A stretch of DNA of 64,000 nucleotides from NCBI RefSeq assembly GCF_000738675.1, contig NZ_JPUX01000001.1:4216001-4280000 (forward strand). Reading direction: 5' to 3'. The DNA is from Serratia nematodiphila DZ0503SBS1 (GTDB lineage Bacteria; Pseudomonadota; Gammaproteobacteria; Enterobacterales; Enterobacteriaceae). The notes under the pieces were generated by a model. The model made no database searches. It was not told the DNA's origin and was given only the letters and a program-made list of their open reading frames with translations. This document shows, piece by piece, positions 9,001 through 11,268 of the stretch; the first letter of the stretch is position 1; each line of letters opens with the position of its first letter. Made by a program: the position numbers and the translations under genes.

Positions 9001-9132
9001 GGTAGAGTTTTCCAGCAGCGGGTATTGGCGGATCGGCAGTTTGCTGAGCGCCAGCGCGCCGAACAGCAGAATCAAGGTGCTGACCACCAGCGCCAGCACC
9101 GGCCGGCGCACGAACAGATCGGTAAATGTCAT
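6052..9132 (-). CDS. RND efflux permease, HAE1 family (MexI-like)
   Basis: 1026 residues, full length for an AcrB/MexB-type proton-driven drug pump of the inner membrane. It begins MTFTDLFVRRPVLALVVSTL (TM1), has two large periplasmic loops, and carries the TM4 motif LVVDDAIVVVENVHRHIEEG (near residue 400) with the paired Asp residues of proton relay. The C-terminal half repeats the topology. It is the last gene of a DoxX-MFP-RND operon, 10 bases after the adaptor gene. No outer-membrane factor gene follows, so it probably uses a TolC-type channel encoded elsewhere. Operon content and the SoxR-type promoter resemble mexGHI of Pseudomonas. Substrates are unknown. Confidence 0.93.
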   Translation of the reverse strand: MTFTDLFVRRPVLALVVSTLILLFGALALSKLPIRQYPLLENSTITISTDYPGASSELMQGFVTQPIAQAVSSVEGVDYLSSSSVQGRSVVTVRMALNRDSTQALTEVMAKVNQVRYKLPEQAYDPVIERSAGEATAVAYVGFSSKTLSTPALSEYLTRVVEPMFTTIDGVAKVEVFGGQKMAMRLWLDSDRLAGRGLTAADVADAVRRNNYQAAPGKVKGQYVVANVRVNTDLTSVEEFRNLVVRNDGNGLVRLKDVGTVELGAAATETSALMDGEPAVFLGVFPTPTGNPLVIVDGIRHLMPAIDKMQPPGVKMALAFETARFIQASIDEVVHTLLEALAIVVAVIYLCLGSLRTVLIPVVTIPLSILGAAGLMLAFGFSVNLLTLLAMVLAIGLVVDDAIVVVENVHRHIEEGKTPLAAAMIGAREVAGPVIAMTLTLAAVYAPIGLMGGLTGALFREFALTLAGAVVVSGVVALTLSPVMSSLLLPAKQSEGRVAHAAEWFFGGLTRRYARALDFSLHHRWLTGTLALLVMISLPLLYLMPQRELAPTEDQAIVLTAIKAPQQANLNYVERFAYKLDEVYNRMPETESRWIINGSDGTASGIGGINLTLWQARQRSASAVQADLQRAVNDVEGTSIFAFQLPALPGSTGGLPVQMVLRTPQDYPQLYRTLEEVKQNARNSGLFMVVDSDLDYNNPLAEVHIDRAKANSLGIRMSDIGESLAVLVGENYLNRFGMDGRAYDVIPQSLREQRLTPQALARQYVRAQDNTLVPLSTVVSVAVKVEPNKLTQFNQQNAATLQAIPAPGVSMGEAVAFLERQANALPAEFSHDWQGDSRQYTQEGSALAFAFLAALVIIYLVLAAQYESLKDPLIILITVPLSICGALLPLALGYATMNIYTQVGLVTLIGLISKHGILMVEFANELQMHQGLTRRAAILQAAQIRLRPVLMTTGAMVFGLIPLLFASGAGAASRFGLGLVIVSGMLVGTLFTLFVLPTVYTLLARDHAVASPRQRELAAAQKALTE

Positions 9133-9142
9133 CGGTCTCTCC

Positions 9143-10228
9143 TCAGGAACCGGCCTGGGCGGCGTTCAGAGCATCCTGCGCTACCGGCTCGGCCGCCATG
9201 CCGTCGCTCAGCTTGAGCTGGCCCGAAGTCACCACCCGGTCGCCTTCCTGCAGGCCGTTGACGATCTCGACACGCCCGTCGTTGCGCTCACCTACGGTGA
9301 CTGAGACGCGCTTGACCGTCATGCCCTTTTCACCCTGCTGGGCCAGAAACACGGTATCGCCGTACGCCGTATAGGTCAGCGCCGTTTCCGGCACCGTCAG
9401 CACCGCCACGCGCTGCTGCTGCGTGACGCGAATGCCCGCGTACATGCCGGCTTTCAGCAATCCTTGACGGTTGGCCAACGTCGCCTGCACCTGCACGGTG
9501 CGAGATTTGCCGATCATCGGATCGATAGCGGTAATGGCGGCGGGGAAAGCGCGCTCGGGATAGGCGCCGACCTGCACCGACACCGCCTGCCCCAACGCCA
9601 GTCCGGCGCTGCTTTGTTCGTCCAGCGAGAAGTTGACGCGCAGCGTATCGGCGTCCACCAGATTGGCCACCGCCTCGGCGGCGTTGAGGTATTGCCCTTC
9701 ATGCACGCGACGAATGCCGATGACGCCGGAGAACGGCGCGCGGATCGCCTTTTGCGCGATTTTGGCCTGCGTTTCCTGCACCGCCCCGAACGCCATATCC
9801 CGTTCGGCCAGCGCATCGTCCAACTGCTGCCGCGCGGTGGCGTTGAGGTTCATCAGCTTGCGCATGCGCGCCAGCAGCAGATCGGCATTGCGCAGTTGCG
9901 CCTGCAGGCGCACCAGCTCAGCCTGCTCGACCGCATCGTTGAGCTGCACCAGCAGTTGCCCCTGCCGTACCGTTTGGCCGGATTCGAACAGGATGCGCGT
10001 AATGCGGCCGCTGGTCTCTGCCGCCACTTCCACCTGACTGGCCGCCTCCAGCTCGCCTACGCCGGCGTAACTGCGCGCCGCCTGTTCACGCAGGGCAGGC
10101 GCCAGCGCCACTTTCACCGGCGGATAGGCCGGCGCGCCTTCGCTTTGCCGTGCGGTGGATCGCATCGCTACCGCAGCGACGGCGAGCGCCGCCAGCAGCG
10201 CGGCAATAATGAGATATCGTTTCATCAT
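9143..10228 (-). CDS. RND efflux periplasmic adaptor (membrane fusion protein, MexH-like)
   Basis: 361 residues. Residues about 5-23 form an N-terminal membrane anchor without a lipobox cysteine. Then come the first half of the lipoyl domain (VAAETSGRITRILFESGQTV), a helical hairpin (about 95-165), the second lipoyl half (IRAPFSGVIGIRRVHEGQYL) and the beta-barrel and membrane-proximal domains. It bridges the inner-membrane RND pump and an outer-membrane channel. Its ATG overlaps the doxX stop by 4 bases (ATGA), which suggests translational coupling. Confidence 0.92.
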   Translation of the reverse strand: MMKRYLIIAALLAALAVAAVAMRSTARQSEGAPAYPPVKVALAPALREQAARSYAGVGELEAASQVEVAAETSGRITRILFESGQTVRQGQLLVQLNDAVEQAELVRLQAQLRNADLLLARMRKLMNLNATARQQLDDALAERDMAFGAVQETQAKIAQKAIRAPFSGVIGIRRVHEGQYLNAAEAVANLVDADTLRVNFSLDEQSSAGLALGQAVSVQVGAYPERAFPAAITAIDPMIGKSRTVQVQATLANRQGLLKAGMYAGIRVTQQQRVAVLTVPETALTYTAYGDTVFLAQQGEKGMTVKRVSVTVGERNDGRVEIVNGLQEGDRVVTSGQLKLSDGMAAEPVAQDALNAAQAGS

Positions 10229-10653
10229 GCAGCCTCACGCGTGTTGGCCAGCCGTTGACGCAAACGGCTGGCGATGGCCGTCACCCACAGCCCGCCGATC
10301 ACCGTGATGTGTTCCAGCGCGAAGTAGAGGGAGATCTGCATGTTGGGAGCGGACATATTCCAGAAGGTGTGTACGATCGCGATAGTCAGGATCAGGAACG
10401 CCGACAGCATACCGGCGCCCAGCCACACCCAGCGGTTCAGCAAGATCAATACCGAACCTGTCAGCAGCACCGACGCCGACGCCAGGTTGAACAGCCAGGC
10501 CGGATGCAAACCGGCGGCGCGCATCTCCGCCAGGCTCCCTTCGATGTCGAACAGCTTGGCGAGCCCCGACGAGATGAAAATCACCATCAAGCACAGACGT
10601 GCGAGCAGCCAAAGCCAATAACTGTCCAGAGCGGTGTTGATAAAGCGTTGCAT
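10225..10653 (-). CDS. DoxX-family membrane protein (MexG-like)
   Basis: 142 residues with four predicted membrane helices (about 13-30, 52-70, 76-95 and 110-130), the DoxX layout. It is the first gene of the operon with the RND adaptor and pump. In Pseudomonas mexGHI-opmD the first gene also encodes a small DoxX-like protein, so the same position here supports a functional unit. The start has AGGAAG about 9 bases upstream. The biochemical role of this subunit is not established by the sequence. Confidence 0.85.
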   Translation of the reverse strand: MQRFINTALDSYWLWLLARLCLMVIFISSGLAKLFDIEGSLAEMRAAGLHPAWLFNLASASVLLTGSVLILLNRWVWLGAGMLSAFLILTIAIVHTFWNMSAPNMQISLYFALEHITVIGGLWVTAIASRLRQRLANTREAA

Positions 10654-10750
10654 AACGGTTTCTTCCTGATTTTACAGCCGAGCCATCCTTCTCCCCGATA
10701 AGACGGGGGCAGGTCTTGAGAGATGCCGGTTGCCAAGCCCGGCAGGCTGA

Positions 10751-10781
10751 ACTATAAAACCTCAGGTTAACTTGAGGTCAA
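10751..10781 (-). promoter_or_regulatory. SoxR operator within a 19-bp-spaced promoter of the efflux operon
   Basis: CCTCAGGTTAACTTGAGG (10760-10777) differs at one base from the E. coli soxS SoxR site, CCTCAAGTTAACTTGAGG. Read on the minus strand, it sits between a -35 TTGACC (10781-10776) and a -10 TATAGT (10756-10751) with a 19-base spacer. That over-long spacer is the hallmark of SoxR/MerR-activated promoters. The promoter points at doxX, so oxidised SoxR should switch on the pump operon. Confidence 0.92.
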
Positions 10782-10797
10782 GTTGAGGAAAGATAAA

Positions 10798-11268
10798 ATG
10801 GCAAGAAATGAACCGATTGACGCCAATCGGCTATTGACCGTCGGGGAAGTGGTGAAACGCAGCGGCGTGGCGGTATCCGCACTGCACTTCTACGAGAGTA
10901 AAGGGTTGATTCAGGCGACGCGCAACGCCGGCAATCAGCGGCGTTATCCGTCTGTGGTATTACGCTATATCGCGGTGATCAAGATCGCGCAGCGCGCGGG
11001 CCTTCCGCTGGAAGAAATCCGCGCCGCACTAAGCCGCTTCCCCATCGGCAGCAAGCTGACCTCAGAACAATGGGGAGTGCTGTCCTCCGCCTGGCGCAAA
11101 ACGCTGGATGAGCGTATTCAACGGCTAACGGTGCTGCGCGACCATCTCGACAGCTGCATCGGCTGCGGCTGCCTGTCGCTCACCGACTGCCCGCTGCGCA
11201 ACCCGAACGATATATTGGGCCGGCAAGGGGCCGGCGCGCATATTTTCGAACACCCGGATGGGCAATGA
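10798..11268 (+). CDS. soxR: Redox-sensitive transcriptional activator SoxR
   Basis: 156 residues. MerR-type DNA-binding head (about 12-80, with VAVSALHFYESKGLI), dimerisation helix, and the [2Fe-2S] ligands Cys120, Cys123, Cys125 and Cys131 in CIGCGCLSLTDC, the exact SoxR spacing. The frame is open to a TTG at 10783, but the ATG at 10798 follows GAGGAA at 10785-10790 and matches the family N-terminus. It is divergent from the efflux operon, and the operator lies in the 144-base gap. No soxS gene is next to it, unlike E. coli. Redox-cycling compounds oxidise the cluster and activate the target promoter. Confidence 0.97.
   Translation: MARNEPIDANRLLTVGEVVKRSGVAVSALHFYESKGLIQATRNAGNQRRYPSVVLRYIAVIKIAQRAGLPLEEIRAALSRFPIGSKLTSEQWGVLSSAWRKTLDERIQRLTVLRDHLDSCIGCGCLSLTDCPLRNPNDILGRQGAGAHIFEHPDGQ

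What the first reader, a model, noticed from the sequence alone, without database searches (positions are those of the whole stretch)
9132..11268. SoxR directly controls a mexGHI-like efflux operon instead of soxS
Seen: soxR (with the CX2CXCX5C cluster) is divergent from a doxX-MFP-RND operon. The gap contains CCTCAGGTTAACTTGAGG inside a promoter with a 19-base spacer facing the pump, and no soxS is adjacent. Known: in Pseudomonas SoxR activates mexGHI-opmD in response to redox-active metabolites, whereas in E. coli soxR faces soxS. Inference: this enterobacterium uses a Pseudomonas-like SoxR circuit to export a redox-cycling compound, possibly a self-made pigment or a competitor's phenazine.
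Basis: partly seen in the sequence, partly recalled or inferred. Interest (0 to 1): 0.72.

Follow-up and report, generated by a model that had tools for sequence, protein, structure and literature searches.

The report
Redox sensor SoxR drives efflux pump
In this Serratia-type bacterium the redox sensor SoxR sits back-to-back with a drug-pump operon and very probably switches it on directly, instead of working through the relay gene soxS as in E. coli; the same arrangement is already in print for Proteus and Providencia.

Summary
soxR (10798-11268 +) is divergent from doxX-MFP-RND (10653-6052 -). The gap holds TTGACC-19 bp-TATAGT facing the pump with an 18-bp SoxR palindrome (one mismatch) in the spacer, the geometry of E. 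coli soxS. It is the only such site in the 5.22-Mb genome; no soxS ortholog was found there or in the 29 other genus genomes searched. Direct SoxR control is very likely. SoxR and the adaptor occur in the same 11 of 30 genus genomes, beside nucA in all 11. In a tree of 103 SoxR rows the 52 soxS-facing and the 45 pump-facing rows fall on opposite sides of strong branches; the pump side includes Proteus, Providencia, Morganella, one Xenorhabdus and several beta-proteobacteria. Unlike Pseudomonas MexGHI-OpmD the operon has no outer-membrane gene, doxX is optional in relatives, and soxR is adjacent. The layout was reported in 2026 for P. mirabilis and P. rettgeri (PMC13231899) and MexGHI was noted in S. 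marcescens in 2018 (PMC5958200): a new member of a known kind. The pigment or phenazine inference is untested.

The parts
10798..11268 (+). soxR, MerR-family [2Fe-2S] redox sensor, 156 aa
   Evidence: TIGR01950 208 bits, cut-off 116.9; E. coli SoxR 2zhg/2zhh, E 3.3e-56; four Cys invariant
10760..10777 (.). SoxR operator (18-bp palindrome, 1 mismatch to CCTCAAGTTAACTTGAGG)
   Evidence: (only place in the genome at up to 3 mismatches)
10776..10781 (-). -35 element TTGACC of the pump promoter
   Evidence: kept in relatives
10751..10756 (-). -10 element TATAGT, 19 bp from the -35
   Evidence: kept in relatives
10225..10653 (-). doxX, small membrane protein (MexG position), 142 aa
   Evidence: PF07681, 61.4 bits, cut-off 23.6; present in 3 of 11 genus genomes with the module
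9143..10228 (-). RND periplasmic adaptor (MexH position), 361 aa
   Evidence: TIGR01730 241.1 bits, cut-off 94.9
6052..9132 (-). RND permease (MexI position), 1026 aa; last gene of the operon
   Evidence: NF033617 1327.2 bits, cut-off 1250; followed convergently by nucA, no outer-membrane gene
5196..6002 (+). nucA, DNA/RNA endonuclease; flank that marks the site of the module, not part of the circuit
   Evidence: PF01223

Best explanation
A one-regulator, one-operon redox circuit. SoxR binds the palindrome in the over-long (19 bp) spacer of the doxX promoter. Reduced SoxR leaves the promoter off; when a redox-active compound oxidises its [2Fe-2S] cluster SoxR distorts the DNA, the -35 and -10 elements come into register and doxX-MFP-RND is transcribed. 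The pump then exports redox-active or similar aromatic compounds through a separately encoded TolC-type channel. The same site, 20 bp before the soxR start codon, probably lets SoxR limit its own synthesis. There is no SoxS relay. Shown by sequence: gene order, promoter geometry, single recognisable site, no soxS ortholog found, conservation, co-occurrence. Inferred from studied SoxR proteins: the switching mechanism and autorepression. Inferred without direct evidence: substrates, TolC partner, role of DoxX.
For: SoxR family and cluster. Promoter with 19-bp spacer and operator, kept in 30 of 33 soxR-linked relatives although the adaptor is down to 53% identical among them. Only operator in the genome at up to 3 mismatches. 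SoxR (E<=1e-25) and adaptor (E<=1e-60) occur in the same 11 of 30 genus genomes and are missing from the same 19. No soxS: 26 AraC-type hits, best 56-58% identical to E. coli SoxS; the SoxS-like parts of the 8 strongest were scanned and none reaches the SoxS model (best 149.6 bits, cut-off 174). The two strongest recur in 26 of 30 genus genomes whether or not they have SoxR, so they are not SoxR's partner. Experiments elsewhere on this layout: S. maltophilia soxR-mfsA, TTGACC and 19-bp spacer, gel shift, primer extension and mutant data, SoxR autorepression (PMC4411124, passages); P. aeruginosa SoxR activates mexGHI-opmD under paraquat and also answers to pyocyanin (PMC8466533, passages); spontaneous mutants of P. 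mirabilis and P. rettgeri with a change in soxR of this same locus, among other changes, have raised MICs of gepotidacin and levofloxacin (PMC13231899, passages).
Against: No expression, binding or transport datum exists for this locus in the calls made. The palindrome has one mismatch. Three of 33 linked relatives depart from the promoter pattern (L098 longer spacer, L099 weak -10, L121 no good -10 at that spacing). In 22 of 55 loci (two of them only distant, 24-25% identical adaptors) no soxR lies beside the pump within the DNA held, so the pump family is not tied to SoxR everywhere. SoxR may regulate weaker sites that the pattern search cannot tell from chance (21 against 15). Identity alone does not part SoxS from Rob cleanly: true soxS partners go down to 58% (L073), Rob-like hits up to 60%; adjacency and frame length were used as well. 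Adaptor and permease trees disagree about the nearest relatives of the Serratia pump.
Confidence: 0.88

Rival explanations
1. SoxR here keeps an E. coli-like general superoxide role: a diverged MarA/Rob/SoxS paralog elsewhere acts as SoxS and the pump is only one of several direct targets.
For: 26 AraC-family matches to SoxS in the genome, among them a stand-alone 152-aa Rob-like protein (C2:63090, 57-58%).
Against: That gene and the Rob-like gene at C1:900861 have counterparts in 26 of 30 genus genomes, including those without soxR; the only SoxR operator at up to 3 mismatches is the one at soxR-doxX; none of the 8 strongest hits passes the SoxS model.
Confidence: 0.08
2. The operator serves mainly to repress soxR; the pump is chiefly driven by another regulator (for example the neighbouring LysR protein) and redox control is marginal.
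For: The operator lies 20 bp before the soxR start; a lysR gene follows soxR in the window.
Against: The 19-bp promoter with -35 and -10 faces the pump, not soxR, and is what relatives keep. The lysR gene was seen beside soxR in only 2 of the 11 genus genomes with the module, own and G169.
Confidence: 0.04
3. A genomic island acquired from a Pseudomonas-like donor, as inferred in print for MexGHI of some S. marcescens strains; the module may have no settled role in the host. (This concerns origin and does not exclude the best explanation.)
For: PMC5958200 (passages) places MexGHI on genomic islands of some strains and gives 82% homology to P. aeruginosa; patchy presence, 11 of 30; module GC 0.62-0.65 against 0.55-0.60 just outside; the permease groups with Pseudomonas endophytica and beta-proteobacterial permeases; the highest-identity adaptor among the named loci outside the genus is that of P. 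endophytica, 66% over part of its length.
Against: nucA lies about 3.1 kb from the adaptor in all 11 genus genomes with the module, so the site is old and shared; relatives have diverged with the promoter kept; one module-less genome keeps the last codons of both RND and soxR, so absence there is a loss; the adaptor tree puts Serratia with Morganellaceae.
Confidence: 0.2

Closest known systems
Proteus mirabilis / Providencia rettgeri soxR facing doxX, RND adaptor and permease (PMC13231899, 2026; passages seen)
   Same: Same genes and divergence, no soxS beside soxR; SoxR on the same side of the tree; same promoter in L119 (P. mirabilis), L093 and L095 (P. rettgeri), while L098 (P. rettgeri) has a longer spacer.
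   Different: Identity 65-69% (SoxR), 58-59% (DoxX where present), 56-60% (adaptor), 74-76% (permease) in L119, L093, L095, L098. The paper does not name Serratia (0 occurrences) and gives no operator or phylogeny in the passages seen.
Pseudomonas aeruginosa SoxR - mexGHI-opmD (PMC8466533, PMC7671543; passages seen)
   Same: DoxX-type small protein, adaptor and permease in one SoxR-activated operon (that MexG is DoxX-type is recalled).
   Different: No opmD-like gene here; in P. aeruginosa SoxR also drives PA3718 and PA2274, here one site only; in P. aeruginosa soxR is not next to mexGHI (recalled). No P. aeruginosa sequence was compared.
Stenotrophomonas maltophilia soxR-mfsA (PMC4411124; passages seen)
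   Same: Divergent soxR and pump, shared SoxR box, TTGACC and 19-bp spacer, autorepression shown there.
   Different: MFS pump, not RND.
E. coli soxRS
   Same: Same operator and 19-bp spacer facing away from soxR (L003).
   Different: Target is soxS; SoxR on the other side of the tree, 64% identical.

Membership tests
SoxR (TIGR01950) | Score above curated cut-off | tested here: met
   208 bits, cut-off 116.9
SoxR (TIGR01950) | Four cluster cysteines CX2CXCX5C | tested here: met
SoxR (TIGR01950) | Operator in a 19-bp spacer of a target promoter | tested here: met
SoxR (TIGR01950) | Redox-dependent activation | not testable with these tools
   needs mRNA measurement
SoxRS two-step circuit (E. 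coli) | soxS divergent from soxR | tested here: not met
   doxX is there instead
SoxRS two-step circuit (E. coli) | SoxS ortholog in the genome | tested here: not met
MexGHI-OpmD | DoxX-type small membrane subunit first in the operon | tested here: met
   PF07681; but absent in 8 of 11 genus genomes with the module
MexGHI-OpmD | RND adaptor and permease | tested here: met
   TIGR01730 and NF033617 above cut-off; the best-scoring equivalog model for the permease, NF007133, is not reached (1236.9, cut-off 1763)
MexGHI-OpmD | Outer-membrane factor gene in the operon | tested here: not met
   nucA follows convergently; the genome has other outer-membrane factors, 16 PF02321 matches in 8 frames
MexGHI-OpmD | Phylogenetic grouping with P. 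aeruginosa MexGHI | not tested
   no P. aeruginosa sequence was at hand; a Pseudomonadaceae search failed
MexGHI-OpmD | Export of phenazines | not testable with these tools
   needs transport assay

The most novel reading that the evidence does not exclude
Enterobacterales hold two SoxR lineages, each inherited with its own target. The SoxS relay taught for enterics belongs to one of them; the S. marcescens group and the Morganellaceae carry the other, a SoxR-pump module shared with beta-proteobacteria and a verrucomicrobium, and, as far as tested, have no SoxS at all. The pump-type sensor differs from the SoxS-type next to the cluster (position 127 Leu in 45 of 45 pump rows, Arg in 30 of 52 soxS rows) and at position 89 (Lys in 37 of 52 soxS rows, in none of 45 pump rows), so it may answer to a narrower set of redox compounds.
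Probability: 0.6. Interest if true: 0.55.

Novelty: new member of a known kind. Interest (0 to 1): 0.42.

Why it matters
Papers on Proteus mirabilis have explained soxR changes through soxS or AcrAB (PMC4710684, PMC5701452; passages). If SoxR in Serratia, Proteus, Providencia and Morganella only controls its own RND pump, redox responses and soxR mutations in these genera have to be read differently. The older question whether SoxR first served export or general defence also becomes testable, by comparing two well-defined SoxR types on nearly the same promoter.

Tried and rejected
Window-only significance of the palindrome: the 14-letter pattern at 3 mismatches is at chance level, so the whole-genome search was used. 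A Pseudomonas-like island: not favoured but not excluded. On checking, the GC profile does show the module somewhat above its neighbours (0.62-0.65 against 0.55-0.60; genome-wide GC was not measured), so I raised this rival from 0.15 to 0.2. The RND tree (FastTree support 0.97 for Serratia with Pseudomonas endophytica, Variovorax and others) contradicts the MFP tree (0.97 for Serratia with Morganellaceae); unresolved. A short leader ORF before doxX, seen by eye, is not conserved and was dropped. Wider direct regulon: no further site above control. Class-level survey: 6 of 114 genomes had SoxR; of the 14 named control genomes only E. coli rang, so no P. aeruginosa sequence came from it. Protein search with the adaptor: 120 of 366 hits listed, only the 8000 best-sharing candidates scored; no hit named P. 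aeruginosa was seen among the 120. PMC11596051 (passages) has nothing on this locus. Dietrich 2008 and Sheplock 2013 are not held, so their target tables and specificity residues could not be checked.

Rows dropped: of 120 SoxR proteins extracted, 17 were left out of the tree: second copies of the same genome or record, the truncated plasmid copy (L002), and L077, whose frame has a stop. Some near-copies stayed in (L044/L149; identical pairs such as L047/L087). G012 (L080) has soxR at a contig end, so its partner is unknown.
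Full report
What is there. The window lies in a two-contig, 5.22-Mb genome. Its closest named relatives are S. bockelmannii and S. marcescens records (adaptor 96% identical), so it belongs to the S. marcescens group. soxR (10798-11268 +) is back-to-back with doxX (10225-10653 -), an RND adaptor (9143-10228 -) and an RND permease (6052-9132 -), assigned by NCBIfam and Pfam. The three pump genes overlap or nearly touch. The permease is followed convergently by nucA, so the operon has no outer-membrane gene.

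The promoter. Read towards the pump the gap gives TTGACC, 19 bp, TATAGT, with CCTCAAGTTAACCTGAGG starting on the last two letters of the -35. E. coli soxRS (L003) has the operator in the same position between soxR and soxS. The 18-letter consensus with up to 3 mismatches occurs at one place in the genome; the reversed control gives none. A looser pattern adds only chance-level places (21 against 15). Of the 55 loci that a search with the adaptor alignment brought from named genomes, 33 have a soxR divergent from the pump: 3 Serratia, 11 Providencia, 11 Proteus, 1 Morganella, 1 Xenorhabdus and 6 outside the Enterobacterales. Thirty of the 33 keep the operator (up to 2 mismatches) and a good promoter at exactly 19 bp; the exceptions are L098, L099 and L121. 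Eighteen of the 33 have doxX.

No SoxS. With E. coli SoxS (from L003) as query, 26 AraC-type matches were found in the genome, the best 56-58% identical; the SoxS-like parts of the 8 best were scanned and none reached the SoxS equivalog cut-off (best 149.6 of 174 bits). The two best have counterparts at 55-57% in 26 of 30 genus genomes irrespective of SoxR; the other four genomes, all with smaller genomes (1.5-3.6 Mb), have no match at E<=1e-34. In nine genomes behind named loci (four Providencia, Morganella morganii, Proteus mirabilis, S. marcescens 106R, two Xenorhabdus) the best match of each is at most 60% identical and lies in a Rob-sized frame of 302-322 codons. True soxS partners in the family survey are 58-99% identical and adjacent to soxR; the identity ranges touch, so adjacency and frame length also count.

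Distribution. In a survey of 149 family genomes, nearly one per genus, 57 have a SoxR at E<=1.4e-38. Of these 57, 51 face soxS, 4 face the pump (own, G025, G090, G082), 1 is cut by a contig end (G012) and 1 has neither partner within 1.5 kb and carries a stop (G057). Within the genus 11 of 30 genomes have SoxR (E<=1e-25) and the same 11 have the adaptor (E<=1e-60). All 11 have the pump divergent from soxR; doxX lies between in 3 (own, G169, G160), while 8 go straight from the operator to the adaptor. In seven of those 8 leader and junction look nearly identical; the eighth, G150, differs. This suggests one loss of doxX, with a separate history in G150, but a single-gene species tree does not group the doxX-bearing genomes, so strain-to-strain exchange is possible. 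doxX is also variably present within Proteus and Providencia.

Site and loss. In all 11 genus genomes with the module nucA lies about 3.1 kb from the adaptor. In nine larger loci (eight genomes, L082 and L088 being one record) fimbrial genes lie on the soxR side, in L085 only a partial match. Two close relatives without the module have nucA followed by the luxR-like/fimbrial region (L203, L204). Alignment of L203 with L082 runs past nucA into about the last seven codons of the permease gene and resumes at about the last eight codons of soxR: this genome lost the module by a deletion between the two genes. L204 shows no such remnant. In a tree of one housekeeping gene (23057-24247, which I take for rlmI, recalled) for 27 of 30 genomes, the module is found in 10 of the 12 genomes whose product is 99-100% identical, and in G150.

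Two SoxR lineages. A maximum-likelihood tree of 103 SoxR rows puts the 52 soxS-facing rows on one side of a branch (99/94) and the 45 pump-facing rows, with the undecided L080, on one side of another (100/99). The pump side holds Serratia, Proteus, Providencia, Morganella and one Xenorhabdus together with a Rhodocyclaceae MAG, Thauera, Paracandidimonas, Stutzerimonas kirkiae, Pseudomonas endophytica and the verrucomicrobium Cephaloticoccus. Rows include near-copies, and the pump rows came largely from a search by pump, so the tree shows that partner and lineage agree, not how often each occurs. Columns that separate the sets include position 127 beside the cluster (Leu 45/45 against Arg 30/52) and position 89 (no Lys in 45 against Lys in 37/52). 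That residues near the cluster tune SoxR specificity, and that species-specific lysines affect superoxide sensitivity, I know from titles in reference lists and recall; those papers were not read.

Outer-membrane partner. Among 18 pump loci inspected, all 6 non-enterobacterial soxR-linked ones (L094, L099, L100, L121, L122, L126) have, just after the permease, a same-strand frame that begins like an outer-membrane-factor lipoprotein (L099's is short); only L100 was checked by family (TIGR01845). None of the 8 enterobacterial ones (L088, L090, L092, L095, L103, L115, L119, L131) shows one, judged from strand and first residues, not by scan. The own genome has 16 matches of PF02321 in 8 frames, one of them TolC-like (183 residues scanned). 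So these bacteria probably use a shared TolC-type channel; this is inference.

Conflict. FastTree trees of adaptor and permease disagree: the adaptor puts Serratia with Morganellaceae (0.97), the permease with Pseudomonas endophytica and beta-proteobacterial pumps (0.97). Exchange of the permease or a rooting problem are possible; the origin of the Serratia module is unsettled.

What is in print. PMC4146615 (passages) states the accepted contrast: soxS only in enterics, where it appears to be SoxR's only direct target; non-enterics use SoxR on transporters and small-molecule enzymes. PMC13231899 (April 2026; passages) already reports for P. mirabilis and P. rettgeri a soxR without neighbouring soxS, divergent from DoxX, adaptor and permease genes, and spontaneous mutants changed in soxR (and elsewhere) with raised MICs; it proposes SoxR control of that pump. 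PMC5958200 (passages) reports MexGHI on genomic islands of some S. marcescens strains; the word soxR does not occur in its text. I found no paper on the soxR link in Serratia in the searches, which cover open-licence papers only and of which I saw listings, and passages of the papers named here.

Verdict. It is less exceptional than it seemed: a new member, in Serratia, of a kind known from Pseudomonas and lately from Proteus and Providencia, with the added result that enterobacterial SoxR comes in two lineages that match their targets. The native inducer and substrate are unknown. The module's presence in Proteus, Providencia and Morganella, which to my knowledge make no phenazines or prodigiosin (recalled), speaks for defence against outside redox compounds rather than self-made pigment, but this is inference.

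Noticed in passing
L002 (NZ_CP044035.1, 19222-31621): A Klebsiella pneumoniae plasmid record typed as conjugative carries a Serratia-like segment (5'-truncated soxR 98% identical at protein level, LysR, DUF1471, fimbrial genes) directly beside TniQ, TniB and Mu-type transposase genes: a captured chromosomal piece that begins inside soxR.
   Followed up: partly
L092 6557, L096 6539, L103 6236: Three Xenorhabdus pump loci keep the SoxR operator and the 19-bp promoter but no soxR was found next to them.
   Followed up: partly
L203, past position 2772: A relative without the module retains the last codons of the RND permease gene and of soxR beside nucA, a deletion scar.
   Followed up: yes
window 11276-12616: A lysR gene and a divergent BhsA-like DUF1471 gene lie between soxR and the fimbrial operon here and in G169; lysR was not seen in the other 9 genus genomes with the module.
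   Followed up: partly
window 17000-21000: GC falls to 0.42-0.45 around regulator-like genes beside the fimbrial operon, against 0.55-0.65 upstream.
   Followed up: no
protein P0020: A 436-aa protein listed with both a DoxX (PF07681) and RND adaptor domains: doxX and adaptor may be fused in one source.
   Followed up: no
window 3481-5049: A TrkH-type transporter gene before nucA (name by recall) is present in some genus loci (L083, L086, L089, L203) and not seen in others (L081, L082, L084, L085, L087, L088, L204).
   Followed up: no
L077 (G057): A SoxR-like frame, 47% identical, with an in-frame stop and neither soxS nor pump within 1.5 kb.
   Followed up: no
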